Shown: one piece after another, positions 2,306 through 33,688 of the stretch | How positions within the stretch are numbered: the stretch's first letter is position 1 | How the letters are laid out: each line of letters starts with the position of its first letter | Source of the DNA: Streptomyces sp. NRRL S-1022 | GTDB lineage: Bacteria; Actinomycetota; Actinomycetes; Streptomycetales; Streptomycetaceae | Reading direction: 5' to 3' | DNA length: 64,000 nucleotides | Assembly: GCF_000720135.1 (NCBI RefSeq) | Contig: NZ_JOIU01000006.1 | Location: forward strand, 186,001 to 250,000 | Notes under the pieces: model-generated | What the model was told of the DNA's origin: nothing | The model's database searches: none | Seen by the model: the letters and a program-made list of their open reading frames with translations, nothing else | Program-made: the position numbers and the translations under genes

Positions 2306-5701
<3,396 letters not shown>

Positions 5702-5705
<4 letters not shown>

Positions 5706-10279: not shown

Positions 10280-13200
10280 GCACCAGCTTCGTGGAGCTGC
10301 TGCGCGAACGGGCCGGGACGGCACCGCACCGCCTGGCCCTGGAGTTCGCGCTCGGCGAGGACACCTACCTGCCCCTGGACCACGCCGGACTCGACCGGCG
10401 CGCCCGCGCCGTCGCCGCGCTGGTCCAGGACCACGTCCCCCCGGGCGGCCGGGTCCTGATCGTCCACCAGCCCGGGCCCGACTACGTCGGCGCCTTCCTC
10501 GGCTGCCTGTACGCCGGAGCGGTGGCCGTGCCGGTCTACCCGCCCACCGGAGCGCGCGGCCGGGACCGGCTGGCCGCCGTGATCGCCGACGCCGGAGCCG
10601 AACTCGCCCTGGCCGACCGGGAGTTCCTGGACGGCCCGGCCGACGCCCGGGACGGACTCGGCACGGCCGGCACGGTGCACTGGGCGGCCGGCGACGACGT
10701 CGACCCGGCCCGGGCCGAGGACTGGACCGAGCACCGCCCCGCCCCGGACGACCTCGCGTTCCTGCAGTACACCTCCGGCTCCACCGGCCGCCCCAAAGGG
10801 GTCATGGTCAGCCACGGCAACCTCGTGCACAACTCGGCCGTCATCGCGCGCGCCCTCGGCCTGACCGAGGACAGCCGGGCCGTCAGCTGGCTGCCGCCTT
10901 ACCACGACATGGGGCTGATCGGCGGCATCCTGCAACCGCTGCACACCGGCTTCCCCTGCACCCTGCTGTCCCCGCTGGCCTTCATGTACCGTCCGGCACG
11001 CTGGCTGCACGAACTGACCCGGACCCGCGCCACCGTCACCGCCGCGCCCGACTTCGCCTACGGTGAGGCGGTCCGCCGGGTCACCCCCGAGGACCGCCGC
11101 GCCCTGGACCTGTCGGCGCTGCGGCACGCCCTGGTCGGCGCGGAGCCGGTGCGCGGCGCCACGCTCGACCGGTTCGCCGAGACCTTCGCGGGCACCGGAT
11201 TCGACCGGTCGGCCTTCGTGCCCTGCTACGGCCTCGCCGAGGCCACCCTCTTCGTCTGCGGCGGCACCCGCCCGTCCGCCGAACCGGCCCGGCTGCGGGT
11301 GGAGCGGACCGCGCTGGACGAGGGCCGGGCCGTCGTCGCGCCCGGCGGCCCGCACAGCCGTGAACTCGTCGGCTGCGGCCGCGCCGAGGACGAGGACCTC
11401 CTGCTGGTCGTCGACCCCGCCTCGGGCCGCCCGCTGCCCGACGACGAGGTGGGCGAGGTGTGGGTCGGCGGACCCACGGTGGCGCTCGGCTACTGGCAGC
11501 GGCCCCGGCAGACCCGCGAGACCTTCGCCGCCCGGGCCGCGGGCCACCCCGGCCGGGTCTTCCTGCGCACCGGGGACCGGGGCTTCCGGCACGACGGGGA
11601 ACTCTTCCTCACCGGCCGGAACGACGACCTGATGATCGTCCGGGGCCGCAACCACTACGCTCCCGACCTCGAACAGACCGCGGAGGCCGCGCACCCCGCG
11701 CTCCAGCCCGCGCGCAGTGCCGCGTTCACCGTGGACGACGACGCCGGGGGCCGGATCGTCCTCGTCCACGAGGTGCGCGGGCGGCTGGACGCCGACGCCG
11801 TCTCCCGGATCACCGCCGCGGTCCGGGAGAGCGTGGCCGACGGGCACGGGGTGCGCGTCGACGACGTCGTCCTGGTGCGGCTCGGCGCGATCCCGCGGAC
11901 CAGCAGCGGCAAGATCCGCCGGGCGGAGTGCCGTACCCGCTGGCTGGCCGGCGACCTCGTACCCGTGGCCGCACCTCCGGCCGCCCCGGCCCCGGCCGCT
12001 GCCGTCCCGATCGCCGTAGCCCCGGCCGCCGGCGCCGTCCCGGTCGCCGGCGGGCCGCCGGACGGCCTGCTCCGGCTCGCCGCGGCCGAACTGGGGACGT
12101 CACCGGCCGCCCTCGACCCGGATGTGCCGCTGGTCGCCCAGGGCCTGGACTCGCTGCGCGCCGTGCGCCTGCTGGCGGCACTGCGGGAGGAGCACAAGCT
12201 CGCCGTGACCCTCGCCGCCCTGCTCGGCGGACTCACCCCGCGCGACCTCGCCGGCCTCCCGCAGCAGGAGCCGGTCCGGCCCGCCGCCGACGGTCCCTGG
12301 GGGCCGACCGCCGCGCAGGAACGGATGTGGCTGCTGGACCAGATGGGAGCCGGCGGCGCCTACCACATCGCGGGCGGACTGGACATCACCGGACCGCTGG
12401 ACGCCGGCGTGTTCCAGGAGTGCCTCACCCACCTCCTCGCCACGACACCCGCACTGCGCTCGGTGTTCCCCGCCGGACCCGACGGCCTGCCCACCGTGGA
12501 GGTCCGGCCGCCCGGCGACAGCCACCGGCCGACCGTGATGGACCTGTCCGGGCCGCCGCGGGAACCCGGCCGCGCGGCACGCGCCCGTGACCTCCTCGCC
12601 CGGCTCGCCGCCGAACCCTTCGACCTCGCCGCCGGGCCGCTCGTGCGGGTGCTGCTGGTCCGGCTGGGGCCCACCCGGTGGATGCTCGGGCTCGCCGCCC
12701 ACCACATCGTGCTGGACGGCTGGTCCCTGGGCCTGCTGCTGCGCCGGCTCGCCGACGGCTACCGCCGGCTGACGGCAGGCGGCACCCCGCCGGTTCCGGC
12801 GGCCGGCCGGCCCCCCGCGCCCCGCCCCGCCTTCACCGACGCCGACGCCGCGTTCTGGCGGGCCCGGATCGGCACCGCCCGACCGGTCGCCCTGCCCACC
12901 GACCGCCCCGCCCCCGCCCTGCCGACCTGGCGCGGGGGAGCGCTGCCGGTCCGCATCGACGCCGGCCTCGCCGGCCGGCTGCGGGCGCTCGCCGCCGAGC
13001 GCGGAGCCACCCCGTTCATGGTCCTGATGGCGGCCTTCGGCGTGCTGCTCGGCCGGTGGAGCGGCCAGGACGACCTGGTGGTGGGCACCGTCGTGTCCGG
13101 CCGGGGCGGGGGCGAGGACACCGAACACGTGGGCCTGCTGGCCGACACGGTGCCGGTCCGGGTCAGCCTGCGGCCCCCCGGCGAAGGCCCGGCGGACACG

Positions 13201-15642
13201 GTGGACACGGTGGACTTCACCACCGTCCTCGACCGGGTCCGTGCCGCCTGCCTGGCCGTCCACGGCCACCCGGCGAACGCGTTCCACGACATCGTCCGCG
13301 CCCTGGGCGGACAGCCCGACGGCAGCCGCGCCCCCGTCGTCCGCACCCTGCTGGTGCTCCAGAACCTGCCCGTCGAACCCTGGGAGGCGGCGGGTATCCG
13401 CGCCGAACCGTTCGAACTCCCCTCACCAGGCGCCCAGTTCGAGCTCTCGGTGCATCTGGGCGAGAGCCCGGACGGTTCGCTGGCGGGCCACGCGGTGTAC
13501 GCCGCCGACCTCTTCGACGAGGCCACCGTCGCCGGCCTGCTGGACGGCCTGCCGAACCTGCTGGCCGCGGCGCTCGACCGGCCCACGGCCCCCGTCGCCG
13601 GCCTGCCGCTGCTGACGGCCGCCGAGACCGAGGAGCGGGTCCGCACCGTCTGCAACGGCGGTCCCGCCGCCCTGGACCACGGCGTCGTGCACCACCTCCT
13701 GCGCCGGGCCGCCGGTGACTTCCCGGACGTCCGGGCCGTGGTCTGGGACGAAGGGGTGCTCACCTACCGCGAGCTGATGTCCCGCGTGCACGCGCTGGCC
13801 GCCCGGCTCGGCGCGCTCGGCACGGGCCCGGACCAGCCGGTCGCCGTCTGCCTGCCCCGCTCCCCGGAACTGGTCGTCGCGGTGTGCGCGGTGCTCGTCG
13901 CCGGCGGCGCCTACGTGCCGCTCGACCCCTCCCACCCGCCGGCCCGGCTCGCCCGGCAGGTCACCGGCACCTCCGCCCGGGTTCTGATCGGCACACAGGA
14001 GACGGCGCGACGCGTGCTGTCCGGGCTCGACGGCACCGCCACCGCACCGGCCGTGCTCGACGCCGTACCCGCCGCCGGGCCCACCGCCGGGCCGGCCACG
14101 GCCCCGGACCCGCCGCACCCTGCACCGCCGCACCCCGAACCGCTGGTACACCCCGCACACCTGGCCAACATCCTGCACACCTCGGGCTCCACCGGCGAAC
14201 CCAAGGCCGTCATGACCACGCACGCCGCCCTCGCCAACCGGCTGGCATGGGTGCACCAGGAGTACGGGCTGCGCCCAGGCGAGGCCGTGCTGCACAAGAC
14301 ACCCGTGAGTTTCGACGTAGCCGGCTGGGAACTCCTGGCTCCGCTGACCACCGGCGCCACCGTGGTCCTGGCCCGGCCCGAGGGCCACCGCGACCCCGCC
14401 TACCTCGCCCGCCTGATCACCCGGCACGCCGTCACCACCTGCCACTTCGTGCCGTCCATGCTCGACGCCTTCCTGGCGGAACCCCAGGTGGCGGCCTGCG
14501 CGCCCGTGCTGCGCCGGGTGGTGTGCAGCGGCGAGGAACTGCCGCCCGCCCTCGCCGAGCGCTTCGCCCGCGTCCTGCCCGGAGTGGAGCTGCACAACCT
14601 GTACGGACCCGCCGAGGCGGCCATCGACGTCACCGCCCACCCGGTCCCGCTGCCCCCGGCCGGCCGGACCCGCCTGCCGATCGGGCGGCCGATCGCCGGC
14701 ACCGAGGTGTACGTCCTGGACTCCGCCGGACACCTCGCCCCGCCCATGGCGCCGGGCGAGCTGTACATCGGCGGCCTCGCACCGGCCCGCGGCTACCTCG
14801 GGCAGCCGGCGCTCACCGCGGAGAAGTTCGTCCCGCACCCCTTCGTCCCCGGTGCCCGGCTGTACCGCACCGGCGACCGCGGGCGCCTCCTGCCCGACGG
14901 CAGCCTGGAGTTCCTGGGCCGGACCGACCGGCAGTTCAAGATCCGCGGACAGCGGGTGGAGGCCGCGGAGATCGAGACCGTCCTCGGCCGCCACCCGGCC
15001 GTCCGCGCCGCCGTGGTGGCGGCCCGCCCCGGTCCGGACGGCCGGCCCCGTCTGCTGGCCTGGGCGGTGGCCGGCACCGCCGCGTCACCCGGCCCCGACG
15101 GCCTGCGCGCCTTCCTGGCCGAACGGCTGCCGCCCGGACTGCTGCCCGACGCCGTGTACCTGCTCGACCGGCTGCCGGTCGGTCCGCACGGCAAACTGGA
15201 CCCGGCCGCGCTGCCCGAACCCGCGGCCCACGAGCCGGCCGGCCGGCCCGGTGCACCCGCCCGGACCGCCCCCCGGGACGCCGTGGAACGCTCGCTGGCC
15301 GTCATCTGGAGCGAGGTGCTCGGCATCGGGGAACCGTCCGTGACCGACGACTTCTTCGCCCTCGGCGGCCACTCGCTGCTGGCCACCCGGCTCGCCGTAC
15401 GCGTCCGCGCCGACTTCGGGCTGGAACTGCCGGTCGGGGAACTGCTGAGCGGCGGCCCGCTGACCATCGAGCGGCTGGCCGGCCTGATCCAGACCCGGCA
15501 GCTGACCCAGACCGACGGCGAGGAGCTGGGCGAAGTCCTGGACTGGCTGGCCGAGTTGTCCGACGAACAGGTCGCGGAACTGCTGGCCGGCCCGGGGCAA
15601 GCCCGGCAACTCCCCGACACCGCACCCGACACCGGGACCTGA
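10276..15642 (+). CDS. Starter NRPS: FAAL-T-C-A(Ser)-T
   Basis: Protein of 1788 residues that starts lipopeptide assembly. A fatty acyl-AMP ligase (about 1-560) has YTSGSTGRPKG near 165, the VPVYPPTG and SWLPPYHDMGLIGG signatures and the RTSSGKIRR end. A carrier follows (GLDSL, Ser near 624). The condensation domain has HHIVLDG near 809. The adenylation domain has HTSGSTGEPK near 1300 and specificity residues D-V-W-H-V-S-L-I-D-K (serine). The final carrier has LGGHS near 1698. FAAL domains activate free fatty acids as adenylates and load them on the carrier, so the first product is N-acyl-serine. The start codon overlaps the previous stop and follows GGAGGAGGG. Although third in gene order it should act first, so the cluster is not colinear. 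Confidence 0.94.
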   Translation: MSTSFVELLRERAGTAPHRLALEFALGEDTYLPLDHAGLDRRARAVAALVQDHVPPGGRVLIVHQPGPDYVGAFLGCLYAGAVAVPVYPPTGARGRDRLAAVIADAGAELALADREFLDGPADARDGLGTAGTVHWAAGDDVDPARAEDWTEHRPAPDDLAFLQYTSGSTGRPKGVMVSHGNLVHNSAVIARALGLTEDSRAVSWLPPYHDMGLIGGILQPLHTGFPCTLLSPLAFMYRPARWLHELTRTRATVTAAPDFAYGEAVRRVTPEDRRALDLSALRHALVGAEPVRGATLDRFAETFAGTGFDRSAFVPCYGLAEATLFVCGGTRPSAEPARLRVERTALDEGRAVVAPGGPHSRELVGCGRAEDEDLLLVVDPASGRPLPDDEVGEVWVGGPTVALGYWQRPRQTRETFAARAAGHPGRVFLRTGDRGFRHDGELFLTGRNDDLMIVRGRNHYAPDLEQTAEAAHPALQPARSAAFTVDDDAGGRIVLVHEVRGRLDADAVSRITAAVRESVADGHGVRVDDVVLVRLGAIPRTSSGKIRRAECRTRWLAGDLVPVAAPPAAPAPAAAVPIAVAPAAGAVPVAGGPPDGLLRLAAAELGTSPAALDPDVPLVAQGLDSLRAVRLLAALREEHKLAVTLAALLGGLTPRDLAGLPQQEPVRPAADGPWGPTAAQERMWLLDQMGAGGAYHIAGGLDITGPLDAGVFQECLTHLLATTPALRSVFPAGPDGLPTVEVRPPGDSHRPTVMDLSGPPREPGRAARARDLLARLAAEPFDLAAGPLVRVLLVRLGPTRWMLGLAAHHIVLDGWSLGLLLRRLADGYRRLTAGGTPPVPAAGRPPAPRPAFTDADAAFWRARIGTARPVALPTDRPAPALPTWRGGALPVRIDAGLAGRLRALAAERGATPFMVLMAAFGVLLGRWSGQDDLVVGTVVSGRGGGEDTEHVGLLADTVPVRVSLRPPGEGPADTVDTVDFTTVLDRVRAACLAVHGHPANAFHDIVRALGGQPDGSRAPVVRTLLVLQNLPVEPWEAAGIRAEPFELPSPGAQFELSVHLGESPDGSLAGHAVYAADLFDEATVAGLLDGLPNLLAAALDRPTAPVAGLPLLTAAETEERVRTVCNGGPAALDHGVVHHLLRRAAGDFPDVRAVVWDEGVLTYRELMSRVHALAARLGALGTGPDQPVAVCLPRSPELVVAVCAVLVAGGAYVPLDPSHPPARLARQVTGTSARVLIGTQETARRVLSGLDGTATAPAVLDAVPAAGPTAGPATAPDPPHPAPPHPEPLVHPAHLANILHTSGSTGEPKAVMTTHAALANRLAWVHQEYGLRPGEAVLHKTPVSFDVAGWELLAPLTTGATVVLARPEGHRDPAYLARLITRHAVTTCHFVPSMLDAFLAEPQVAACAPVLRRVVCSGEELPPALAERFARVLPGVELHNLYGPAEAAIDVTAHPVPLPPAGRTRLPIGRPIAGTEVYVLDSAGHLAPPMAPGELYIGGLAPARGYLGQPALTAEKFVPHPFVPGARLYRTGDRGRLLPDGSLEFLGRTDRQFKIRGQRVEAAEIETVLGRHPAVRAAVVAARPGPDGRPRLLAWAVAGTAASPGPDGLRAFLAERLPPGLLPDAVYLLDRLPVGPHGKLDPAALPEPAAHEPAGRPGAPARTAPRDAVERSLAVIWSEVLGIGEPSVTDDFFALGGHSLLATRLAVRVRADFGLELPVGELLSGGPLTIERLAGLIQTRQLTQTDGEELGEVLDWLAELSDEQVAELLAGPGQARQLPDTAPDTGT

Positions 15643-16172: not shown

Positions 16173-17998
<1,826 letters not shown>

Positions 17999-18002
<4 letters not shown>

Positions 18003-18958: not shown

Positions 18959-20067
18959 TGGACCCGTCGAGGCGCCTGGCGGAGGCCCTCGTCGACGCCG
19001 ACGCCCTCGTCCGCGCCGTGCCCGGCCTGCGGGTCGCCTCGACGCCCGGCGCCCCGCTGACCCAGGTGCGGCTGGACTCCGTCACCGGGCAGCTGGGACT
19101 GCCCCGGCTGGAGGTGGTCGCGGACCCCGACGGCCTGTGGTCCGTGGAACTGGCACTCACCAGACACCTGGCCCGGGCGAGCGCCGGGGACGGCACGGCC
19201 GCCGGGCCGGCGGGTCAGTGGCGTACCGAGGGGCCGGTCCCGGTCCGGGCCACCGACGGCACCGCGCTGCGCTGCTGGTCGGCCGGGCCCCCGGACGCCC
19301 CCGTCGTCGCCCTGGTGACGGCCTGCGGCATGCCGGCCGGGCTCACCGCGGGATGGATGCGGGCGCTCGCCGGCCCGTTCCGCGTGGTGACCTGGGAGAG
19401 CCGGGGCATGTTCGGCGCGCCGGACGCGGACGGTCCCGCCCCGCTCGGCGCGCATGACGTGGCCTCCCAGGCCGGCGACCTGCTCGCGGTCCTCGACGCC
19501 CTGGACGTCCCCGGTGCCCATGTGATGGGACTGTGCGGCGGAGCGGTCCTCGCGCTGGCCGCGGCGGCCACCGCCGGCCCGCGGGTCAGCTCGCTCAGCC
19601 TGTGGCACGGCGACTACGACCTCGGGGACGCGGCACCGCGGACGGAGCACCAGCGTGACATGCAGGCCATGATGGCGATGGCCGCCCGCGGCCCGGAGAA
19701 GGCGGCGGGCGTGCACCGGCTGATGCGCCGCCCCGTGGTGCTGGACTCGCTGCGCCCCGACATCGCCCACCACCTCATCTACCCTTACGCGACTCCGCTG
19801 TTGCTGCACCGCTACGGCCTGCTCAACGGAGCGATCATGTCCCACGACTCCCGCCCCTACCTGTCGGCCGCCCAGCCCGTGCTCGTGGTGACCAGCCGGG
19901 ACGACGTCACCGCCCACCCGGCCGGATCGCGCTACGTCGCGGCCCACCTGCCCCGGGCGCGGCTGGTCACCCGGCCGTCCGGCGACCACCTCACCGCGTT
20001 CGACGCGGGCCCGGAGGTGGTCCGGCTCGCCGAGCGGTTCCTGAGCGACGTCCTGGAGGACGCATGA
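18958..20067 (+). CDS. SyrC/CmaE-type aminoacyl transferase (Cys alpha/beta-hydrolase)
   Basis: A 369-residue alpha/beta-hydrolase-fold protein whose nucleophile elbow is GLCGG with Cys193 instead of Ser. An acid and a His are plausible in SRDD and PSGDH near the C terminus. A Cys nucleophile is typical of SyrC and CmaE, which shuttle an aminoacyl group between carrier proteins by a covalent thioester. Direct placement after the halogenase fits moving the chlorinated residue from the A-T didomain to another carrier: the one fused to the FkbM methyltransferase (next gene) or an NRPS carrier. The first 90 residues have no motif I recognise. Confidence 0.88.
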   Translation: MDPSRRLAEALVDADALVRAVPGLRVASTPGAPLTQVRLDSVTGQLGLPRLEVVADPDGLWSVELALTRHLARASAGDGTAAGPAGQWRTEGPVPVRATDGTALRCWSAGPPDAPVVALVTACGMPAGLTAGWMRALAGPFRVVTWESRGMFGAPDADGPAPLGAHDVASQAGDLLAVLDALDVPGAHVMGLCGGAVLALAAAATAGPRVSSLSLWHGDYDLGDAAPRTEHQRDMQAMMAMAARGPEKAAGVHRLMRRPVVLDSLRPDIAHHLIYPYATPLLLHRYGLLNGAIMSHDSRPYLSAAQPVLVVTSRDDVTAHPAGSRYVAAHLPRARLVTRPSGDHLTAFDAGPEVVRLAERFLSDVLEDA

Positions 20068-21503
20068 GCCAGTTCGAGGACACCGACCCGGCCGGGCGGC
20101 TCGCGGCGGTGCTGCGCGAGCACGCGGCCGTGGCCGACGCCGCCGTGGAGGTACCGGACGGCGGCGGCCCCGCGGTCGTCCGCCTGGTCCCCGACCCGGA
20201 GCGGGCCCCGCTGCTGCACCGCTCGGCGGCCGTGGAGGCGGCCGGCCGCCTCGGCCCGCTCGGCTGGCACGAGCCCGCCGCCGACCTGCGGGTGGCCGGG
20301 GTGAACCGCAGCGAGAGCGACTTCCTCCACCGCGAGATCTTCGTGGACGACGTCTACTTCCGGCACGGCGTCGACCTGCCCGCCGGTGCCGTCGTCGTGG
20401 ACGTCGGCGCCAACATCGGCATGTTCACCCTGTGCGCGGCCCGCCGCAGCCCCGGAGCACGGATCATCGCCTGCGAACCGCTCGCCGAACTCGCCGCCGC
20501 GGTGGCCGTCAACGCCGAAGTGCACGCGGCCGACGTCACGGTCGTCGCCCGGGCCGTCGGCGCCGCCGAGGGGGAGGCGGACTTCACCTTCTACCCGCAC
20601 AACAGCGTGATGTCCGGCGCGTTCGCCGACGCCGACGACGACCGGCGCACGCTGCGCGGCTACCTGCTCACCGGCGCCGACAGCGAGGGCGTGGACCCGC
20701 AGGACCGGCTCGTGGCCGACCGGCTCGCCGCCGACCTGCTGGCCGCCGAGCACCGGCGGGTCGCCGTCACCACGCTCGCCCGGATCGCCGCCGACCACGG
20801 GCTGACCCGGATCGACCTGCTCAAGATCGACGTGGAGAAGGCCGAGGAGGACGTGCTGCGGGGCATCAGCCCCGAGCTGTGGGCCGGCATCCGGCAGATC
20901 GTGATGGAGGTGCACGACATCGACGGACGCCTGGCCTCCGTCACCAAGACCCTGGAGGGCCGGGGTTTCGGCGTCGTCCACGAGCAGGACCCGCGGCTGG
21001 CCGACACCGCCTGCGTCAACGTCTACGCCCGCCGCCCCGGCGCGCCCGGGGACACCGGCGCCCGCCCGCCCGGGACCGCGCACCGGCCAAATCCCGGGCC
21101 GGTGCTGTGGCGCCTGGAGGCCGAACTGCGCGACCTGCTGGCCCGCAGGCTGCCCGGCACCCCGGCACCGGGCCGGTTCGAACTCACCACCGACCTCGGG
21201 GCGGCCGGCGAGCGCGCGGAGGAGGTGCCCCGGGCCACCGTCCCGCTCTCGGCCCGTGCCGAGGTCTTCGCCCGGGTCTGGGCGGGCATCTTCGGCGCCG
21301 AGGCGGTCCGCCCGGACGCGGACTTCTTCGACCTCGGAGGCGACTCGCTGACCGCCATGCGCCTGCTGACCCGGCTGGAGGAGCAGCTCGGCGAGGACGC
21401 GCTGGAACCGGACCTGATCTTCACCGCCGGCACCTTCGGCGCGCTGGCCGCCGCCGTCGAGGCCTCCGGTGAGCAGCCCTCCGGTCCGGCCCGGTCCCGG
21501 TGA
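20064..21503 (+). CDS. FkbM-family methyltransferase fused to a carrier (T) domain
   Basis: A 479-residue fusion. Residues about 95-330 are an FkbM-type SAM methyltransferase (VVVDVGANIGMFTL glycine-rich motif near 110, then ACEPL, and LLKIDVEKAEEDVL). Residues about 390-465 are a carrier domain with DLGGDS, phosphopantetheine Ser428. The first 50 residues (LREHAAVADAAVEVPDGG) resemble the A9 region after an adenylation core, as if the protein were cut from an MT-bearing NRPS module. FkbM enzymes usually make O-methyl ethers. A fused carrier suggests the substrate is tethered here, probably after delivery by the Cys transferase. Overlaps both neighbours by 4 bp. A GTGA junction starts the next gene. 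Confidence 0.85.
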   Translation: MSQFEDTDPAGRLAAVLREHAAVADAAVEVPDGGGPAVVRLVPDPERAPLLHRSAAVEAAGRLGPLGWHEPAADLRVAGVNRSESDFLHREIFVDDVYFRHGVDLPAGAVVVDVGANIGMFTLCAARRSPGARIIACEPLAELAAAVAVNAEVHAADVTVVARAVGAAEGEADFTFYPHNSVMSGAFADADDDRRTLRGYLLTGADSEGVDPQDRLVADRLAADLLAAEHRRVAVTTLARIAADHGLTRIDLLKIDVEKAEEDVLRGISPELWAGIRQIVMEVHDIDGRLASVTKTLEGRGFGVVHEQDPRLADTACVNVYARRPGAPGDTGARPPGTAHRPNPGPVLWRLEAELRDLLARRLPGTPAPGRFELTTDLGAAGERAEEVPRATVPLSARAEVFARVWAGIFGAEAVRPDADFFDLGGDSLTAMRLLTRLEEQLGEDALEPDLIFTAGTFGALAAAVEASGEQPSGPARSR

Positions 21504-22240
21504 CCTCCACCAGCCGGTGGTTCCACCGCCCGCTGGCCCGGCCCGCCGCCCGGGTCCGGCTGGTGGGCCTGCCGTACGCGGGCGGCGGCGCGGCGGTCTT
21601 CCGGGACTGGGCCGAGGAGCTGTCCCCGGACGTGGAGCCGGTGTGGGTCCGGCTGCCCGGCCGGGAGAGCCGGCTGGGCGAACGGCCGCTGTCCGACTGG
21701 GACGCGCTGGTCGGCGCGTTCGGCCGCGCCCTGATGCGGCACGTGCCCTCGCCGTACGTCCTGTTCGGACACAGCATGGGCGGCATGCTCGCGTACGAGG
21801 CGGCGACCGCCGGACTCGGCCGCCCACCGGAACGCGTCGTCATCTCGGCCTGCCGCGCCCCGGGCGTCGCCCGCGCCCTGCCCGCCATCCACCACCTGCC
21901 GGAGCCGGAATTCGCCGCCCGGCTGCGCGACCTGGGCGGCGCTCCGGCGGAGGTCCTGGCCAGTCCCGGCCTGTTCCGGCTGTTCGCACCCGCCCTGCGC
22001 GCCGATGTGCGGCTGGCCGAGACCTGGCCGGCGCACCCGCCGCGCCCCGTCCCCGTCCCCGTCACCGTGCTGTGGGGCGACGCCGACCCGGTCGCCCCGC
22101 CCAGCGCCGTACGGGCGTGGCGGCATCTGGCGTCCGGCGGGTTCCGGGGCCACGAGGTGACCGGCGGCCACTTCTTCCTCTCCGACCCGTCCGCCGGCGT
22201 GGTGGACCTGCTCAACCGCGAACTCGGAGCCGCCGGATGA
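21500..22240 (+). CDS. Second thioesterase (type II)
   Basis: A 246-residue thioesterase with GHSMGG as nucleophile elbow, an Asp in LWGDADPV and a His in GGHFF. GTG start overlapping the previous stop (GTGA). It is a separate enzyme from the one at 1529. In the coronamic acid pathway a discrete thioesterase (CmaT) frees the finished amino acid from its carrier. Its place between the FkbM-carrier fusion and the flavoprotein fits that role, but release of the whole peptide is also possible. Confidence 0.9.
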   Translation: MTSTSRWFHRPLARPAARVRLVGLPYAGGGAAVFRDWAEELSPDVEPVWVRLPGRESRLGERPLSDWDALVGAFGRALMRHVPSPYVLFGHSMGGMLAYEAATAGLGRPPERVVISACRAPGVARALPAIHHLPEPEFAARLRDLGGAPAEVLASPGLFRLFAPALRADVRLAETWPAHPPRPVPVPVTVLWGDADPVAPPSAVRAWRHLASGGFRGHEVTGGHFFLSDPSAGVVDLLNRELGAAG

Positions 22241-26675: not shown

Positions 26676-27698
26676 ATGGTTCAGCTGGCGCCTGACGTGC
26701 CCAGGGACGCGGGAGACGGCCACGACAAGACGCCCGTAGTGTGGGTGGTGGACGCTCCGGGCGGTGGATACGTCGAGAGCCCCGACATCGAGGGACGCGT
26801 CGTCGGCCCGCACGGCACCGTGCGCCTGGTCGTCGTGCCGGAAGACGAGCGGGACCGGCTGCCGGAGGCCGAGTGCGACTACATGATCCTCTGGCACCGT
26901 GTCCCGCTCGACGCCTCCTACTTCACCCGCAACACCAGATGCCGCGCCGTCATCTGCGCCAGCACGGGGTACGACCACGTCGCCGTCGAGGCGGCCCGCG
27001 CCGCCGGCACCAGCGTCTTCCACATCCCCCACTACGGCACCGAGGAGGTCGCCGACCACACCCTCGCCCTCTTCCTCGCCCAGGTCCGCAGGCTCCCCGA
27101 CCTCCGCGAGCACGTGCGCGACGGCGGCTGGGACTGGCGCTCCATCACCGACGCCCCCCGGGTGCGCGACATGACCTGGGGCATCGTCGGGCTGGGCCGC
27201 ATCGGCCTGGCCGTCGCCCAGCGCGCCCGCGCCTTCGGCATCCGGGTCTGCTTCCACGACCCCCACAACCACCCCGGGATCGAGAAGTCCCTGGGCCTGG
27301 AGCGCAGGCACTCCCTCGACGAACTCCTCGCCGACGCCGACGTGGTGAGCGTCCACGTCCCGCTCGACTCCACCACCCACCACCTGCTGGGCGCGCGCGA
27401 ACTGGACCGGATGAAGCCCGGCTCGCTGCTGATCAACACGGCACGCGGCGGCGTGGTCGACGTCTCCGCGCTGCGCCCGGCGCTGGCCGCCGGCCGCCCC
27501 GGCCGCGTCGCGCTCGACGTCGTGGAGGGCGAACCGGAACTGCCGCACTGGCTGCGCGACCACCCCCGCGTGCTGCTCACCCCGCACGCCGCCTTCTACT
27601 CCGTGGCCTCGTTGGCCGAGCTGCGCACCCGGGCCGCCGAGGCGGTCCGCGAGCTGATCGTCGCGGCACCCGTCACCTCGGCCGTACGCGTGGTCTGA
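26676..27698 (+). CDS. NAD-dependent D-2-hydroxyacid dehydrogenase (CtBP/PGDH-like)
   Basis: A 340-residue D-isomer-specific 2-hydroxyacid dehydrogenase. The Rossmann motif is WGIVGLGRIG near 177 with an acidic residue at the end of the next strand (FHDP). Catalytic Arg is in NTARGG and His in LLTPHAAF. These enzymes interconvert 2-oxo acids and D-2-hydroxy acids. The ATG follows AAAGGGGAG at good spacing. First gene of the right block, 53 bp before the radical SAM gene. With two PLP enzymes downstream it probably works on an oxo- or hydroxy-acid intermediate of an unusual amino acid; substrate unknown. Confidence 0.85.
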   Translation: MVQLAPDVPRDAGDGHDKTPVVWVVDAPGGGYVESPDIEGRVVGPHGTVRLVVVPEDERDRLPEAECDYMILWHRVPLDASYFTRNTRCRAVICASTGYDHVAVEAARAAGTSVFHIPHYGTEEVADHTLALFLAQVRRLPDLREHVRDGGWDWRSITDAPRVRDMTWGIVGLGRIGLAVAQRARAFGIRVCFHDPHNHPGIEKSLGLERRHSLDELLADADVVSVHVPLDSTTHHLLGARELDRMKPGSLLINTARGGVVDVSALRPALAAGRPGRVALDVVEGEPELPHWLRDHPRVLLTPHAAFYSVASLAELRTRAAEAVRELIVAAPVTSAVRVV

Positions 27699-27751
27699 GC
27701 GCACCGGTACCGCCCCCCGACCTCACCGCCGCTGAACCCCGAAGGATCTCG

Positions 27752-28933
27752 ATGGCTGTGGAAACCCTGTCCCCCGACGCCGCGAGGCAGGCGTGGACGG
27801 ACTGGAAGTGGCAACAGCGCAACGCGGTACGCACCTCCCGCCAGCTGAAGAGCCACTTCCCCAACTGCGACCAGCGGCTGCTGGACATCATCGACCGGCA
27901 CAACCGGACCAAGCGGTTCCAGGCGACGCCCTACTTCCTCAGCCTCGTCGAGACGGACCCGCACACGGGCAACCCGCTGGCCGACGACCCGCTGTGGAAG
28001 CAGGTCGTCCCCATCGACACCGACGAGACGGGCGACGGGGAGGACCCCTACACGTACGACGGGAAGACCGAGAACTGGGAACTGCCCAGCGAGATGGTCA
28101 CCCCGATCGCCCAGCACAAGTACGACAACCGGGTCATCGTCCGCTACGCCAATGTGTGCCACGCCTACTGCCAGTTCTGTTACGAGGCGCTGCGCACCCT
28201 GGACCGCGACTCCACCAAGGTCTCCTTCGACCGCGGCCACTGGCAGGCCACGCTCGACTTCCTGCGCGCCAACCCGCAGGTGGAGGAGATGATCCTGAGC
28301 GGCGGCGAGCCGCTCATGCACAGCAACGACCAGATCGACCAGGTGCTGACGGAGGCCCGCGCCGTCCGCCCCGACCTGATCGTGCGCCTGCACACCCGCT
28401 CGCTCACCTTCAACCCGTACCGCATCGACTCCGGTCTCGTCTCCGTACTGGCCCGGCACGACGTGACCGCGGTCGGCCTGCACATCACGCATCCCCGCGA
28501 ACTCAGCCCGGACTTCGACGACGCGGTACGCCGGCTGCACGGCGCGGTCCCCATCCTCTTCGCCAACGTCCCGCTGCTCGGCGGCGTCAACGACGACACC
28601 GGGACGATGCGGGAGCTGTGCATGGGCCTGTACCGGCGTGGCGTCCACGCCGGCTACCTGTACCACTTCATGCCGCACAGCCCCGAGGCGAGCGCCTTCC
28701 GCGTCCCCGTCAGCCGCGGGGTGGAGATCGTCCGCGCGCTCAAACGGCACATATCCAACCCCGCCGTGCCCGAATACGTGCTGCCGCACGCCACCGGCAA
28801 GTACACCGTCCCGCTGATCGACTCGCCGGACGCCTACCCGCGGCACGCCGTCGACGCCAACGGCGTCCGCGTCCTGCGCGCCGTCAACTGGCAGCAGGAA
28901 ACCATCGAGTACCCCGACCCGGAGATCGTGTGA
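27752..28933 (+). CDS. Lysine-2,3-aminomutase-like radical SAM enzyme with altered substrate site
   Basis: A 393-residue protein of the KamA family. The radical SAM cluster is C136-x3-C140-x2-C143 (CHAYCQFC), SGGEP follows at about 183, and PLP Lys350 lies in HATGKYTVP. Compared with Clostridium lysine 2,3-aminomutase from memory, the substrate-carboxylate Arg134 is Glu145, and the two Asp that hold the lysine side chain (293 and 330) align with Met307 and Val343. The C-terminal zinc Cys motif is also absent. It therefore keeps PLP and SAM chemistry but should not use lysine. An amino migration or other PLP-assisted radical step on a less charged substrate is likely. Expressed with a diiron oxidase, aminotransferases and a SAM synthetase. 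Confidence 0.88.
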   Translation: MAVETLSPDAARQAWTDWKWQQRNAVRTSRQLKSHFPNCDQRLLDIIDRHNRTKRFQATPYFLSLVETDPHTGNPLADDPLWKQVVPIDTDETGDGEDPYTYDGKTENWELPSEMVTPIAQHKYDNRVIVRYANVCHAYCQFCYEALRTLDRDSTKVSFDRGHWQATLDFLRANPQVEEMILSGGEPLMHSNDQIDQVLTEARAVRPDLIVRLHTRSLTFNPYRIDSGLVSVLARHDVTAVGLHITHPRELSPDFDDAVRRLHGAVPILFANVPLLGGVNDDTGTMRELCMGLYRRGVHAGYLYHFMPHSPEASAFRVPVSRGVEIVRALKRHISNPAVPEYVLPHATGKYTVPLIDSPDAYPRHAVDANGVRVLRAVNWQQETIEYPDPEIV

Positions 28934-29000
28934 GGAGCCGGACCCGGCTTCCCCGCACATCGCACCATCACACGGAACGACAGCGACGGAGGACAGGCGA

Positions 29001-30113
29001 GTGAGCAGGGATCTGAGCCTGGAGCGGATGCCGGCTCGGCACGGGGTGCTGCGCGACGCGCACGAGACCCCGGCCGAATCGGTGGAACGCAGGCTGAACG
29101 AGTGCCTCCGCGGCCCCGGGACGACGGTGGAGCGACTCCCCGTCCACGACGACCTGACGGCCGCACTCACCCGGAGGCTGGAGGAGGGACTGTCCCACGG
29201 GGACGACGACGCGCTGCTCGACGTCCACCGCAGCGCCTACACCGTGTACGAGACCCTGCTGGGGCACCCGCTCAGCCCGGCCGCACGGCACGAACGCAGC
29301 ACCTGGTTCAACGCGTTCCGCTCCCTGTACGAGGACCGCGTCCTCGCCGCGGACATCGAGGAGATCGCCGACCGGCTGCCCTCCGCGGGCGACGCCCGGC
29401 ACCCCGGGTTCGTCCGCGAGTGGTTCCTCGCGGCGGCGAAGGAACGCAGCGACCTCGACCGGGCGGTGGAGACCTACCTGGCGGAGAAGGCCACGACCGG
29501 CCAACTGGCCGCCTTCATCCAGGCGGACGGCTACCTCAACTACCGCTTCTACGACGCCCTCGTGCTCGCCCAGCCGCACTTCATGGAGGGCGTCAAGCAC
29601 GAGATCAGCAAGCACATGTGGGACGAGTGCGGGGAAGGCAGGCCCGACGCCGCGCACACCCTGCAGTTCACCCGCAGCCTGCGCCGGCTCGGCCTCGAAC
29701 TGCCCACCGTCCCGCCCTGGGAGGACTGGCGGCCGTACGCCGGACACAACCTCTACTTCCTGCTGGCCTGCAACCGGCGCCACTACTTCAAGGCCCTGGG
29801 CAGCCTGGCCATGCCCGAACTGTTCGACGTCGACCGCGACGCTGCGGTCGTCAAGGGCCTGGAACGCAACGGGTTCACCGCCCAGCACGACTTCGAGTTC
29901 TTCTTCAACCACATGGAGGGCGACGCCGAACACGGCCCCGAGTGGCTGGACGGAGTCGTGCTGCCCATCGTCGAGGCCGAGCCGGACGCCAGCATGGAAC
30001 TGATCACCGGCGGACTGCTGCGGATGCTGGCCATGCGGCGGTACAACGAATACCTCGCCGAGCGCCTGGGGCTGGCCGACGTACCGGACCTCCCCCAGGA
30101 GGGGAGGCGGTGA
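29001..30113 (+). CDS. Heme-oxygenase-like diiron oxidase (HDO superfamily)
   Basis: A 370-residue all-helical protein of the iron-containing redox enzyme / HDO group. Candidate metal ligands are Glu201 and His205 in HEISKHMWDECG, and His304, Glu306, Asp309 and His311 in HMEGDAEHG, the spacing expected of the last ligand helix. The family includes N-oxygenases that build nitro groups (HrmI/BelK, RohS) and C-C cleaving, alkene-forming enzymes (BesC, UndA). Which reaction occurs here cannot be read from the sequence. GTG start after CGGAGGACAG. Its stop overlaps the start of the aminotransferase gene (GTGA). Confidence 0.85.
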   Translation: MSRDLSLERMPARHGVLRDAHETPAESVERRLNECLRGPGTTVERLPVHDDLTAALTRRLEEGLSHGDDDALLDVHRSAYTVYETLLGHPLSPAARHERSTWFNAFRSLYEDRVLAADIEEIADRLPSAGDARHPGFVREWFLAAAKERSDLDRAVETYLAEKATTGQLAAFIQADGYLNYRFYDALVLAQPHFMEGVKHEISKHMWDECGEGRPDAAHTLQFTRSLRRLGLELPTVPPWEDWRPYAGHNLYFLLACNRRHYFKALGSLAMPELFDVDRDAAVVKGLERNGFTAQHDFEFFFNHMEGDAEHGPEWLDGVVLPIVEAEPDASMELITGGLLRMLAMRRYNEYLAERLGLADVPDLPQEGRR

Positions 30114-31171
30114 CCGGCGGGGAGGAGAACCCCTTCCCCTCCCTGGAGATGACCGAACGCGCCACGGGCCTGCGGGCGCGTGAACGGCTCAGCACCAACG
30201 AGAACGAGTTCGGACCGGCCCCCGAGGTGGTCCGCGCCATCGGCGCCACCGCCCGGGAGTGCCACCGCTACCCCGACTGCGACCACCACGAGCTGCGCCG
30301 GCGACTCGGGCACACCCTCGGCGTCCCCGAGGACCACGTGCACATCGGCTCCGGCATCGACGGACTGCTCGGCGTCATCGGCCGCGCCTTCCTCGGGCCG
30401 GGGCGCACCGCCGTGACCAGCGACGCCACCTATCCGACCTTCGCCTACTTCGCACGCGCCGGCGGGGCCACGGTCCACCTCGTGCCGTACCGGGACGCGC
30501 GCGTGGACACCGAGGCCCTGGTACGGCGGGCCACCGACACCGGCGCGGACGTCGTCTATCTCGCCGACCCCGACAACCCGACCGGCGGTTCGCTGGGCGC
30601 ACCGGCCCTGCTGCGGCTGGCGGACCGGCTGCCGGCCCGGACCCTGCTGGTCGTCGACGGCGCCTACACCGAATACCAGCCGCCCGCCGACCGGCCCGCG
30701 GCCGGCGAGCTGACCGGCCGGCGCATGCTCTGGCTGCGCACCTTCTCCAAGGCCCACGCCCTGGCCGGCCTGCGGATCGGCTACGCGGTGGGCGACCGCG
30801 CCCTCCTGGCCGCACTGCGCCGGGGTGGCGAGCACTACGTCGTCGGCCGGGTGGCCGAGGCGGCCGCCCTCGCCGCGCTCGACGCCGTCGGGCATCTCAC
30901 CGACACCGTCCGGCGCACCGCCGAGGGCCGGGCCCACTACGGCAGGCGGCTCACCGAGCTCGGCTACACGGTGCTGGAGGGCACGACGAACTTCGTGACC
31001 TTCCGCTGCGCCGACACCGAGACCGCCGCCGCCGTAGCCAAGCGACTCGCGCAGGCCGGGGTGTTCGTACGGCATCTGGCCGCACCCGGACTGACCGACT
31101 GCCTGCGGATGAGCATCGGTCCCACGGCCCAGCGCGAGGCGGTCCTCGCCGAGCTGACCCGGGCGGCGTGA
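30110..31171 (+). CDS. HisC-like PLP aminotransferase (class I/II)
   Basis: A 353-residue fold-type I aminotransferase close in layout to histidinol-phosphate aminotransferases: LSTNENEFGP near the start, YPDCDHHELR, the substrate/PLP motif DPDNPTGG, VVDGAYTEY, the PLP lysine in RTFSKAHALAGLRIGY and a final LRMSIG with the carboxylate-binding Arg. No histidine genes are nearby, so it is a pathway enzyme that likely aminates a 2-oxo acid or removes the amino group of a precursor. GTG start chosen from AGGAGGGGAGG directly upstream. Confidence 0.88.
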   Translation: MTGGEENPFPSLEMTERATGLRARERLSTNENEFGPAPEVVRAIGATARECHRYPDCDHHELRRRLGHTLGVPEDHVHIGSGIDGLLGVIGRAFLGPGRTAVTSDATYPTFAYFARAGGATVHLVPYRDARVDTEALVRRATDTGADVVYLADPDNPTGGSLGAPALLRLADRLPARTLLVVDGAYTEYQPPADRPAAGELTGRRMLWLRTFSKAHALAGLRIGYAVGDRALLAALRRGGEHYVVGRVAEAAALAALDAVGHLTDTVRRTAEGRAHYGRRLTELGYTVLEGTTNFVTFRCADTETAAAVAKRLAQAGVFVRHLAAPGLTDCLRMSIGPTAQREAVLAELTRAA

Positions 31172-31244
31172 GGCGGCCCCCGCCGCAGCACACGCCCCCG
31201 CCCTCCCGCCCCGAGCCCCTCCTGCTTCGAGACAAGGAGTCCAC

Positions 31245-32414
31245 ATGGCCGCACCCCTGAGCTTCCGGTCCGGATCGCAGATCGCCGAGTCGGTGTGCGC
31301 CGGGCACCCCGACAAGGTCGCGGACCGGATCTCGGACGCCGTGCTCGACGCCTTCCTGACGATCGACCCCCACGCCCGGGTCAACTGCGAGACCCTGGTC
31401 ACCAGGGACAACGTGATCGCCACCGGTCAGATCACCGCGAACGCCGAGGTGGACATCGACGCGACGGTCCGCTCCGTGCTGCGCGAGATCGGCTACCACG
31501 ACGTGGAGCGGCACGGCCTGAGCGCCGACACCTCGACCGTGCGGGTGCTGCTCGACCGCCAGTCCCGCGAGATCGCCGACGGGGTGGACCGCGGCGGTGC
31601 CGGCGACTCCGGCATCGTCTACGGGTACGCCTGCGACGAGACACCGGAACGGCTCCCGCTCAGCTGCGTCCTCGCCCACGACATCGCCCGCCGGGTCGGC
31701 GCCACCGGTGAGCAGGGCGTACCGGCGCTCGGACCGGACGGCAAGGTCCAGGTGGAGCTGTCCCGCCGGGACGGTGCCGAGCGGGCGATCGTCGTCGTCT
31801 CCGCGCAGCACCCGGCCGACCTCTCCCTGGACGAGCTGGCCGACCTGGTGGCGGGCAAGATCGTGACACCGGCGCTGGAGGACCGCGGCGTCGTGCCCGC
31901 CGACATCCACGTCAACCCGGCGGGCACCTTCGTCGTGGGCGGCACCTCGGCCGACGCCGGGCTCACCGGACGCAAGCTCATGGTCGACGCCTACGGGGGC
32001 CTGGTCCGGCACGGCGGCGGCTGCTGCTCCGGCAAGGACGCCACCAAGGTCGACCGGTCCGGCGCGTACGCCGCCCGCTACCTCGCCGCCAACGTCGTGG
32101 CCGCCGGACTGGCCGGCCGCTGCCGGATCGGCCTGGCCTACGCCATCGGCCGCCCGCTGCCGGTCTGGCTCGACGTCGAGTGCTTCGGCACGGCCACGGT
32201 CGCCCACGAGCACATCGCCGCCGTGCTGACGGCCCTGGTGGACCTGCGGGTGGAAGCGGTGATCGAGCGCCTGTCGCTGCGCACCGCCGCCTACCAGCCG
32301 ACCGCCGCCTACGGCCACTTCGGCCGCCCCGAGTTCTCCTGGGAGCGGCTCGACCTGGCGGACGCGCTCCGCTCCCGGCTCGGCGACGGGAAGACCGGCG
32401 CACCCACCGCCTGA
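31245..32414 (+). CDS. metK: S-adenosylmethionine synthetase paralogue
   Basis: A 389-residue methionine adenosyltransferase. It has GHPDK near the N terminus, GGTSADAGLTGRK and SGKDATKVDRS. Two signature positions depart from the usual enzyme: GAGDSG in place of GAGDQG, and GGGCCSGKD in place of GGGAFSGKD. A second metK inside a BGC normally means high SAM demand or SAM as a carbon or nitrogen donor. Here the radical SAM enzyme, two methyltransferases and a VioD/ACC-synthase-fold PLP enzyme are all possible users. The changed signature residues leave open altered kinetics or a methionine analogue. Start has CAAGGAG at good spacing. Confidence 0.9.
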   Translation: MAAPLSFRSGSQIAESVCAGHPDKVADRISDAVLDAFLTIDPHARVNCETLVTRDNVIATGQITANAEVDIDATVRSVLREIGYHDVERHGLSADTSTVRVLLDRQSREIADGVDRGGAGDSGIVYGYACDETPERLPLSCVLAHDIARRVGATGEQGVPALGPDGKVQVELSRRDGAERAIVVVSAQHPADLSLDELADLVAGKIVTPALEDRGVVPADIHVNPAGTFVVGGTSADAGLTGRKLMVDAYGGLVRHGGGCCSGKDATKVDRSGAYAARYLAANVVAAGLAGRCRIGLAYAIGRPLPVWLDVECFGTATVAHEHIAAVLTALVDLRVEAVIERLSLRTAAYQPTAAYGHFGRPEFSWERLDLADALRSRLGDGKTGAPTA

Positions 32415-32425
32415 GACCACCGCCC

Positions 32426-32453
32426 CGACCCCGGACTCCCGACCCCGGACTCC
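32426..32453. repeat. 14-bp tandem duplication in the metK-vioD-like gap
   Basis: CGACCCCGGACTCC is repeated exactly twice (32426-32439, 32440-32453) and followed by partial CGACTCC and CCGACGCC copies. Short slippage repeat in the 92-bp gap; no function apparent. Confidence 0.7.
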
Positions 32454-32506
32454 CGACTCCCGACGCCTCGTGCCCGACGCCTGACGAGAAGAGAGCGCCC
32501 GAAGAC

Positions 32507-33688
32507 ATGGCCCCCTTGCGGACCCGGCAGGAAGACCCCCCGATCCTCGAAGAGTGGTACCGCAGGCACCTGCCCGCCTGCCGCTTCGACATCAGCTCCA
32601 GCGGTGTCCACCCCTACTCCTTCGCGGAGGTCCGCGAGGTGTGCGCGCTGCGCGTCGAGGACCTGGACGGCATCGTCATGGACGACAGCGTCTCGGAGGG
32701 CGGCGCCGGCATCCGCCAGGCGATCGCCGACCGGTACTGCGCCGGCGACGCCGACCGGGTCCTGGTCACCCACGGGTCCAGCGAGGCGATCGCCCTGACC
32801 CTCGACGCCCTGCTGCGGCCCGGTGACCGTGTGGTGGTGCAGGAGAGCATCTACCACTCACTGGGTTACTTCCCGCGGGAGACGGGATGCCGGACGGTGC
32901 CCCTGCCGGCCGACAGCGTCCGGGACGGGGAGATCGACCCGGACACACTGGCCCGGCTGGTCACCCCGGACACGACGGCCGTCATCGTCAACTTCCCGCA
33001 CAACCCGAGCGGCCGGACCCTGAGCCCCCGGGGACTGGACGCCCTGCTGGCCCGGGTGGAGGCCGTCGGCGCCGTCCTGGTCTGGGACGGCGCGACGGCG
33101 GAGATCGCCCACCGCTGGGAGCCGCTGCCCGACCCGGCGACCCGCTACGAACGGACCGTCACCTACGGCACCTTCTCCAAGACCTTCGGCCTGCCCGGCC
33201 TGCGCGTCGGCTGGGCCGTCACCTCGCCCGAACTGCTGCGGGCCACCTTCCCGCTGCGCGACCGCACCACCTTGTTCCTGTCCCCGTTGGTCGAACTCAT
33301 CGCCGAGCACGCCATGCGGCACGCCGACCGGCTCATCGGCCGGCGCGCCGCGGAGGCCCGCCGCAACCTCGCCCACCTCACCGACTGGGCGGCCCGGCAC
33401 GGAGAACTCGTCGACTGGACCCCGCCGGAAGGCGGGGTGTGCTGCCTGCTGGGTATCCGTGAACTGGCCCACGCGCAGGACCGCACCGCGGTCGAGGAGT
33501 TCTGCCGGGACCTGCTCGCCGCACACAAGACGCTGCTGGTGCCCGGCTCCGCCTTCGACGCCCCCCGGTCGGTACGGCTGGGCTTCGGCGGGCCCGAGGC
33601 CGACTTCCGCGCCGGCCTCGAACACCTCTCGCAGTTCCTGGCGCAGCGCGCGCCGGGCTCCGGCCGCGCCGGCGCTCAGGGCGGGTAG
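32507..33688 (+). CDS. Capreomycidine-synthase-like PLP enzyme (VioD family)
   Basis: A 393-residue fold-type I PLP enzyme with striking resemblance to VioD of viomycin biosynthesis: FDISSSGVHPYSFAEVR near 27, THGSSEA near 89, VNFPHNPSGR near 161, WDGA, the PLP lysine K225 in GTFSKTFGLPGLRVGW and LSPLVE. VioD cyclises 3-hydroxyarginine to capreomycidine; related enzymes (GntC) make enduracididine. I find no VioC-like arginine hydroxylase in the window, so the substrate may be a different beta- or gamma-substituted amino acid. Last gene of the BGC. Its 3' end overlaps by 13 bp a truncated polysaccharide-lyase gene on the other strand, which suggests a recombination boundary. Confidence 0.88.
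   Translation: MAPLRTRQEDPPILEEWYRRHLPACRFDISSSGVHPYSFAEVREVCALRVEDLDGIVMDDSVSEGGAGIRQAIADRYCAGDADRVLVTHGSSEAIALTLDALLRPGDRVVVQESIYHSLGYFPRETGCRTVPLPADSVRDGEIDPDTLARLVTPDTTAVIVNFPHNPSGRTLSPRGLDALLARVEAVGAVLVWDGATAEIAHRWEPLPDPATRYERTVTYGTFSKTFGLPGLRVGWAVTSPELLRATFPLRDRTTLFLSPLVELIAEHAMRHADRLIGRRAAEARRNLAHLTDWAARHGELVDWTPPEGGVCCLLGIRELAHAQDRTAVEEFCRDLLAAHKTLLVPGSAFDAPRSVRLGFGGPEADFRAGLEHLSQFLAQRAPGSGRAGAQGG

What the first reader, a model, noticed from the sequence alone, without database searches (positions are those of the whole stretch)
26676..33688. Undescribed amino-acid pathway: dehydrogenase, KAM-like radical SAM, diiron oxidase, HisC-like aminotransferase, SAM synthetase and VioD-like cyclase
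Six consecutive same-strand genes with short gaps combine PLP-radical chemistry, a heme-oxygenase-like oxidase, a SAM synthetase and a capreomycidine-synthase homologue. I know each family separately in natural-product pathways but not this set. It sits next to an NRPS whose A domain has an orphan code, so its product is a good candidate for that residue.
Basis: partly seen in the sequence, partly recalled or inferred. Interest (0 to 1): 0.85.

Follow-up and report, generated by a model that had tools for sequence, protein, structure and literature searches.

The report
Amino-acid pathway beside a lipopeptide cluster
Five neighbouring genes form a conserved bacterial unit that probably builds an unknown modified amino acid; in this Streptomyces-type genome it sits beside a peptide-antibiotic-type gene cluster, while the sixth gene appears to belong to a separate, already known route to capreomycidine.

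Summary
The six genes are real, intact, same-strand and tightly spaced (26676-33688), but probably not one pathway.

Genes 1-5 (2-hydroxyacid dehydrogenase, KamA-like radical SAM enzyme, HrmI-type diiron protein, HisC-like aminotransferase, divergent SAM synthetase) recur together. Dehydrogenase and HisC homologues accompany the KamA-like gene at 13 of 14 loci. The diiron protein and SAM synthetase are at 7 of 7 actinobacterial and 0 of 7 proteobacterial loci. NRPS genes adjoin only 2 of 14. Neighbours elsewhere include exporters, alanine racemase and, at two loci, methionine-salvage genes, hinting that SAM is spent.

Among seven genomes searched, gene 6 (VioD type) occurs in three, each also holding a VioC-like oxygenase (here about 37 kb from gene 6): the capreomycidine route.

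The parts
26676..27698 (+). g1: D-2-hydroxyacid dehydrogenase (340 aa), core gene
   Evidence: GLGRIG at residue 172, TARGG at 255, TPH at 302; homologue beside the KamA-like gene at 13 of 14 loci
27752..28933 (+). g2: KamA-like radical SAM, presumed PLP, enzyme (393 aa), core gene
29001..30113 (+). g3: HrmI-type heme-oxygenase-like diiron oxidase/N-oxygenase (370 aa), actinobacterial extension
30110..31171 (+). g4: HisC-like PLP aminotransferase (353 aa), core gene; overlaps g3 by 4 bp
   Evidence: Lys 214 in TFSK motif
31245..32414 (+). g5: second SAM synthetase (389 aa), actinobacterial extension
   Evidence: TIGR01034 401.7 bits over cut-off 309.4; 46% to the housekeeping-type copy on C12; shortened loop shared by the 7 block copies aligned
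32507..33688 (+). g6: capreomycidine synthase (VioD type, 393 aa); assigned to the NRPS side, not to g1-g5
   Evidence: TIGR03947 510.7 bits over cut-off 390.9; present in 3 of 7 searched genomes, all three with a VioC-like gene
2298..5705 (+). NRPS module C-A-PCP with unassigned A-domain code (D-M-Y-S-V-G-L-Y-C by eye): plausible consumer of the g1-g5 product
   Evidence: code positions recalled
5702..10279 (+). NRPS module C-A-MT-PCP, serine-like code by eye
10276..15642 (+). NRPS: AMP-ligase with DIP2-type C-terminal domain (read as a fatty-acyl-AMP ligase), then PCP-C-A-PCP with a serine-like code by eye
16173..18002 (+). stand-alone A-PCP, threonine-like code by eye
20064..21503 (+). FkbM-type methyltransferase fused to a carrier domain
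21500..22240 (+). thioesterase

Best explanation
Genes 1-5 are a self-contained pathway for a non-proteinogenic amino acid. Its core is a KamA-like radical SAM enzyme, a D-2-hydroxyacid dehydrogenase and a HisC-like aminotransferase. Actinobacteria and Proteobacteria both carry this core, mostly as what looks like a free-amino-acid pathway; the actinobacterial form adds an HrmI-type N-oxygenase and a dedicated SAM synthetase. One Streptomyces lineage recruited it beside a lipopeptide NRPS. Gene 6 is separate: with a VioC-like oxygenase in the same cluster it makes capreomycidine from arginine by the known route. Shown here: intact genes, conserved linkage, the different distribution of g6, NRPS-linked forms inside a clade with NRPS-free forms, and loss of the lysine-binding aspartates in the KamA-like enzyme. 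Inferred mechanism, in falling confidence: (a) the KamA-like enzyme makes a 5'-deoxyadenosyl radical and migrates (or removes) the amino group of a neutral or anionic PLP-bound amino acid, not lysine; (b) the diiron enzyme oxidises an amine nitrogen to hydroxylamine or nitro; (c) the dehydrogenase and aminotransferase interconvert hydroxy, oxo and amino acid to set the final alpha-amino acid; (d) SAM from g5 is also consumed with loss of methylthioadenosine, perhaps on a PLP enzyme as in Mur24 chemistry; (e) the product is loaded by the module with the orphan code.
For: Core linkage: 2HADH and HisC homologues beside the KamA-like gene at 13 of 14 loci with KamA-like identity of 48% or more (exception L061). 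HDO and MetK at 7 of 7 actinobacterial and 0 of 7 proteobacterial loci, within the stretches held; no HDO anywhere in 6 of 6 proteobacterial genomes searched, found in 3 of 3 Streptomyces genomes of the same call. Identical longest-contig lengths in the capped family listings (best 120 of 146, 584 and 1726): HDO and KamA-like 44, HDO and 2HADH 31, KamA-like and 2HADH 35, all three 24, against 0-3 for any pair when the numbers are shifted. VioD in 3 of 7 genomes and VioC-like in the same 3 (plus a weaker one in a fourth). NRPS-linked KamA-like sequences form one clade with S. tricolor (100/99) inside an eight-row actinobacterial clade that holds NRPS-free ones (100/99). Active-site change. HrmI match. 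Methionine-salvage genes beside two of three NRPS-free Streptomyces blocks, in different arrangements; in G1001 the ARD copy by the block is a second copy.
Against: No product or substrate is known; the chemistry steps rest on families and neighbours. Step (d) is thin: in G1174 the ARD gene beside the block is the only copy, so it could be there by chance; the window's own genome, G329, S. tricolor and G1175 each have one ARD hit, away from the block's contig; G091 has the block but no ARD hit at E 1e-5. The A-domain codes were read by eye from recalled positions, and the orphan-code module itself was not in the stretch of G329 that I read. The KamA-like PLP lysine is not aligned column for column with LAM K337 (K350 lies two positions earlier). 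No tailoring gene ties the block to the NRPS product. The KamA-like gene occurs without its partners in L061.
Confidence: 0.6

Rival explanations
1. All six genes make one residue: the VioD-type enzyme is the last step, cyclising a guanidino amino acid modified by g1-g5.
For: Six genes in one same-strand run, conserved in order in three genomes (window, G329, L012 with gene 6 cut).
Against: VioD (E<=1e-60) is absent from 4 of 4 searched genomes whose g1-g5 lie without the window's NRPS. A VioC-like partner exists in the same cluster. The KamA-like enzyme lacks LAM's cation-binding aspartates, which argues against a lysine- or arginine-like substrate.
Confidence: 0.1
2. g1-g5 make a free amino-acid antimetabolite that is not incorporated into the peptide; the block is only a passenger or a co-regulated partner beside the NRPS.
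For: NRPS-free loci variously carry exporter genes (AzlC and MFS by Pfam, EamA-like by eye), an alanine racemase and a GCS2-family ligase. A LuxR-type regulator gene on the opposite strand separates NRPS and block.
Against: The window block itself holds no exporter, racemase or ligase gene, and block and NRPS are conserved together in two genomes.
Confidence: 0.25
3. BesC-like chemistry: g3 cleaves or desaturates a side chain to make a terminal alkene or alkyne amino acid, the GCS2 protein in relatives playing the part of BesA and the racemase that of a resistant target.
For: HDO plus GCS2-family ligase plus alanine racemase in three NRPS-free Streptomyces loci (Pfam on one representative each, the rest by eye); the Bes comparison is recalled.
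Confidence: 0.15

Closest known systems
Lysine 2,3-aminomutase (KamA/AblA; PDB 2a5h) and its Glu, Arg and EpmB relatives
   Different: Below every curated cut-off (181 vs 525 bits for AblA, 168 vs 650 for Glu, 165 vs 600 for Arg); both lysine-binding aspartates (recalled) are Pro; a two-residue insertion after the cluster motif (CYEALR).
HrmI/BelK N-oxygenases (hormaomycin, belactosin): lysine to 6-nitronorleucine
   Same: Fold and candidate ligand set; best match by sequence profile and structure.
   Different: 22% identity; gene context (KamA-like, 2HADH, HisC, MetK) differs from that of hormaomycin as far as I recall; substrate unknown.
Capreomycidine pair VioC/VioD (viomycin, capreomycin; streptothricin OrfP/OrfR)
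   Same: g6 exceeds the VioD cut-off; VioC/CmnC-like oxygenase in the same NRPS region.
   Different: The VioC-like protein is below the VioC cut-off (364 vs 418.6 bits) and just above that of GntD, an enduracididine hydroxylase (362.9 vs 345).
SAM-consuming PLP steps (Mur24, SbzP, ACC synthase)
   Same: MTA release from SAM is my reading of the methionine-salvage neighbours at two loci (Mur24 passage in PMC10491745).
   Different: Only inferred here; sequence kinship of g4 to those enzymes was not tested.

Membership tests
Lysine 2,3-aminomutase (AblA) and named KamA relatives | Score over a curated cut-off | tested here: not met
   all six KamA-family models hit are below cut-off
Lysine 2,3-aminomutase (AblA) and named KamA relatives | CxxxCxxC cluster motif | tested here: met
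   CxxxCxxCYEAxR in 117 of 120 listed relatives
Lysine 2,3-aminomutase (AblA) and named KamA relatives | Asp pair binding the lysine side-chain amine (D293, D330; recalled) | tested here: not met
   P308 and P345 in the window protein; invariant in 17 aligned sequences; motifs Y[HY]FMP in 115 and LPHx[TS]GK in 111 of 120 listed relatives; two of the misses have Ala for P345, several others were not resolved
Lysine 2,3-aminomutase (AblA) and named KamA relatives | PLP-binding Lys (K337; recalled) | tested here: inconclusive
   invariant K350 lies two positions off in the ungapped alignment
HrmI-type HDO | HDO fold over full length | tested here: met
HrmI-type HDO | Three His and three carboxylate ligands | tested here: met
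   D185, E209, H219, H304, D308, H311 by alignment; five invariant and D308 nearly so in 15 sequences; ligand roles by analogy
HrmI-type HDO | N-oxygenation of an amine | not testable with these tools
   needs enzymology
Capreomycidine synthase (VioD) | Over TIGR03947 cut-off | tested here: met
   510.7 vs 390.9 bits
Capreomycidine route | VioC-type arginine 3-hydroxylase in the cluster | tested here: inconclusive
   364.3 vs cut-off 418.6 bits, nearest solved chains VioC and CmnC; above GntD cut-off
SAM synthetase | Over TIGR01034 cut-off | tested here: met
bes-type alkyne pathway | HDO nearest BesC | tested here: not met
   HrmI far above BesC
bes-type alkyne pathway | BesD halogenase in the cluster | not tested
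   no search made

The most novel reading that the evidence does not exclude
A previously undescribed, phylum-crossing family of amino-acid pathways is built on a new KamA-like radical SAM/PLP aminomutase for a non-lysine substrate. In actinomycetes it is coupled to an HrmI-type N-oxygenase and a SAM-consuming step, giving an N-oxidised (nitro or hydroxylamino) alpha-amino acid of unknown structure. It serves as a free antimetabolite in most hosts and as an NRPS building block in this lineage.
Probability: 0.4. Interest if true: 0.82.

Novelty: new variant of a known kind. Interest (0 to 1): 0.6.

Why it matters
If right, the KamA-like family gains a branch with a new substrate, found with the same two partners in actinobacteria and proteobacteria, and the HrmI-type oxidases gain a set of members (146 relatives at E<=0.001), many of which share contig lengths with the radical SAM family. 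The product would be a new modified amino acid, plausibly nitrogen-oxidised, of use as a building block and as a lead for amino-acid antimetabolites. Splitting gene 6 from the block also gives a clean experimental design: two independent amino-acid supplies for one peptide.

Tried and rejected
Altered MetK substrate: I suspected that the short loop of g5 removes a methionine ligand (E. coli Gln98, recalled), but aligned to the E. coli chain that Gln is kept (RQSREI) and only the following loop is shortened, so I dropped a non-methionine substrate for g5.

Six-gene unit: disfavoured. Membership in the named KamA families: rejected. BesC-like g3: disfavoured.

Literature: 10 answered searches of an open-access library listed no paper that I could recognise as describing this gene set; two of them returned no paper, long lists were shown only in part, and subscription papers are not held. 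Seen beyond listings: PMC12614342 (PolF; passages), PMC8399532 (cyclofaulknamycin; passages), PMC13108848 (HDO review; passages), PMC13185094 (MboA; outline and sections 5 and 7), PMC8473136 (Pbo cluster; one passage, which lists a LAM-like gene next to an ATP-grasp gene; kinship to g2 not tested), PMC10491745 (SAM review; passages).

Plasmid search with the KamA-like protein: 132 records, 40 listed; best hit a Burkholderia cenocepacia replicon at 48%, without 2HADH or HisC homologue in 19 kb; the other listed hits are about 32% or less. Genome sampling: KamA-like at E<=1e-60 in 1 of 396 (phylum), 2 of 392 (genus), 2 of 391 (order) genomes, each count including the window's own genome; HDO at E<=1e-20 in 9 of 394 (family), own included, of which only own, G329 and G091 are close (59-100%). 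The samples overlap.

Of the 41 loci I used for the counts only those with KamA-like identity of 48% or more (L012-L019, L021, L030: ten); L020 (39%, no partner found) and L022-L029, L031-L052 (24-33%) were left out, though L020 and four of these served as distant rows in the tree.

Full report
WHAT IS THERE. The window lies at bases 186001-250000 of contig C6 of an 8.9 Mb genome. Families: D-2-hydroxyacid dehydrogenase, KamA-like radical SAM enzyme, heme-oxygenase-like diiron protein, HisC-like aminotransferase, SAM synthetase, VioD-type capreomycidine synthase. To the left are NRPS genes: C-A-PCP, C-A-MT-PCP, a protein read as fatty-acyl-AMP ligase-PCP-C-A-PCP, A-PCP, an alpha/beta hydrolase-containing frame, FkbM-PCP and a thioesterase. 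A LuxR-type regulator on the other strand (23425-25845) separates them from the block. To the right are cellulase-type genes (GH6, GH3-CBM2), which I take as the cluster's edge.

GENE 6 IS PROBABLY A DIFFERENT PATHWAY. A VioC/CmnC-like oxygenase lies at C6:180396-181385, 4.6 kb left of the window and about 37 kb from g6, between NRPS genes. The A domain of the neighbouring C-A-PCP has acidic residues at two specificity positions by eye (D-V-E-E), as would suit a guanidine. Among seven genomes that carry g1-g5, VioD (E<=1e-60) is found in three (own, G329, S. tricolor), a VioC-like gene (E<=1e-30) in those three and, weaker and without VioD, in a fourth. The four without VioD have the block without the window's NRPS in the stretch held. 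In G329 VioC-like and VioD are on one contig, about 36 kb apart; in S. tricolor they are on different contigs and the NRPS was not seen. One caution: the VioC-like protein is below the VioC cut-off and slightly above that of the enduracididine hydroxylase GntD.

GENES 1-5 ARE A CONSERVED UNIT. Dehydrogenase and HisC homologues (E<=1e-8) lie beside it in 13 of 14, not in L061. HDO and MetK homologues are at all 7 actinobacterial loci and, within the stretches held, at none of the 7 proteobacterial ones. A genome-wide search found no HDO in 6 of 6 proteobacterial genomes and found it in 3 of 3 Streptomyces genomes of the same call. In the large protein database the longest-contig lengths of HDO and KamA-like relatives coincide in 44 cases among the best 120 of each, HDO and dehydrogenase in 31, KamA-like and dehydrogenase in 35, all three in 24, against 0-3 for shifted numbers. 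Those listings bear names from Nocardia, Embleya and Alicyclobacillus for both HDO and KamA-like, from cyanobacteria for HDO and from Pseudomonas for KamA-like; I could not read those neighbourhoods.

MOST RELATIVES ARE NOT BESIDE NRPS GENES. NRPS homologues lie next to 2 of 14 loci (window, G329; in G329 the stretch read did not reach the orphan-code module). L012 is on an 8 kb contig and cannot tell; L015 has one free-standing AMP-ligase-like gene; the other 10 have no hit to the window's NRPS genes at E 1e-8 within the stretch held, mostly 10 kb a side. Around the three NRPS-free Streptomyces blocks L013-L015 lie an alanine racemase and a glutamate-cysteine-ligase-family protein (Pfam run on one representative each, the others judged from their sequences). 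At two of the three there are also methionine-salvage genes: MtnA-type fused to a class II aldolase, and ARD, in L013; HAD-type, ARD, and MtnA-type fused to a phosphoribosyltransferase in L014. G1001, the genome I equate with L014, has two ARD hits, one at the block; G1174 (L013) has only the one at the block. Against a general rule: own, G329, S. tricolor and G1175 have one ARD hit each, away from the block's contig, and G091 none. Six of the seven proteobacterial loci were read for neighbours: four have an ATP-grasp-like protein (by eye; the one tested has no Pfam hit) and an MFS-type protein, two have AzlC (Pfam on one), and a PLP-type regulator gene (by eye) lies divergently. G091 adds an EamA-like transporter (by eye), a second KamA-like gene, a branched-chain transaminase and an AurF-like protein below its cut-off.

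TREE. In a 31-row tree the window, G329 and S. tricolor KamA-like proteins form a clade (100/99) within an eight-row actinobacterial clade (100/99) that contains the NRPS-free L013-L015; the nearest outside row is a Nocardia protein (97/95) whose neighbourhood was not read. The branching of L013-L015 among themselves is weakly supported (87/20, 85/73), but with the NRPS-free G091 group just outside (100/100 for the eleven) the NRPS linkage looks derived. Long outgroup branches leave the deepest forks unsure.

MECHANISM. Shown: organisation, linkage, split distribution, clade structure, residue changes. Inferred: a radical aminomutase-type step on a non-lysine amino acid; oxidation of an amine nitrogen; setting of the final alpha-amino acid by dehydrogenase and aminotransferase; SAM spent with MTA release, for which PLP enzymes such as Mur24 give a precedent (PMC10491745, passages). 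The core occurs without HDO in the proteobacterial genomes, so their product is probably simpler than the actinobacterial one. The A domain of 2298-5705, with an unassigned code that keeps the Asp typical of alpha-amino acids (by eye, recalled positions), is the natural consumer. No call tests this.

VERDICT. The unit is most likely five genes rather than six, and its link to the peptide is plausible but derived and untested.

Noticed in passing
L058:13381-14742 and L059:2061-2984, 4193-5191: In G091 (contig length of Actinacidiphila reveromycinica) the block lies near a second, distant KamA-like gene, a branched-chain transaminase and an AurF-like diiron protein (218 bits, cut-off 620): another possible N-oxygenase.
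   Followed up: partly
L054:4725-13363 (C6, left of the window): Two genes with acyl-CoA dehydrogenase domains (one continuing into A-PCP), a thioesterase-like gene, a copper amine oxidase and an arginine deiminase form another possible small-molecule cluster.
   Followed up: no
L055:11387-12472: The VioC-like oxygenase exceeds the GntD (enduracididine hydroxylase) cut-off but not that of VioC, so its substrate could be another guanidino amino acid.
   Followed up: partly
L054:15124-18987: A large STAND NTPase with many WD40 repeats.
   Followed up: no
window 20064-21503: FkbM methyltransferase fused to a carrier-protein domain, near a stand-alone A-PCP with a threonine-like code.
   Followed up: no
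L061: Burkholderia cenocepacia replicon with a 48% KamA-like gene but no dehydrogenase or HisC homologue within 19 kb.
   Followed up: partly
window 34128-39010: Cellulose-degradation-type genes (GH6, GH3-CBM2, and by eye a lytic monooxygenase-like protein) directly follow the block on the other strand.
   Followed up: no
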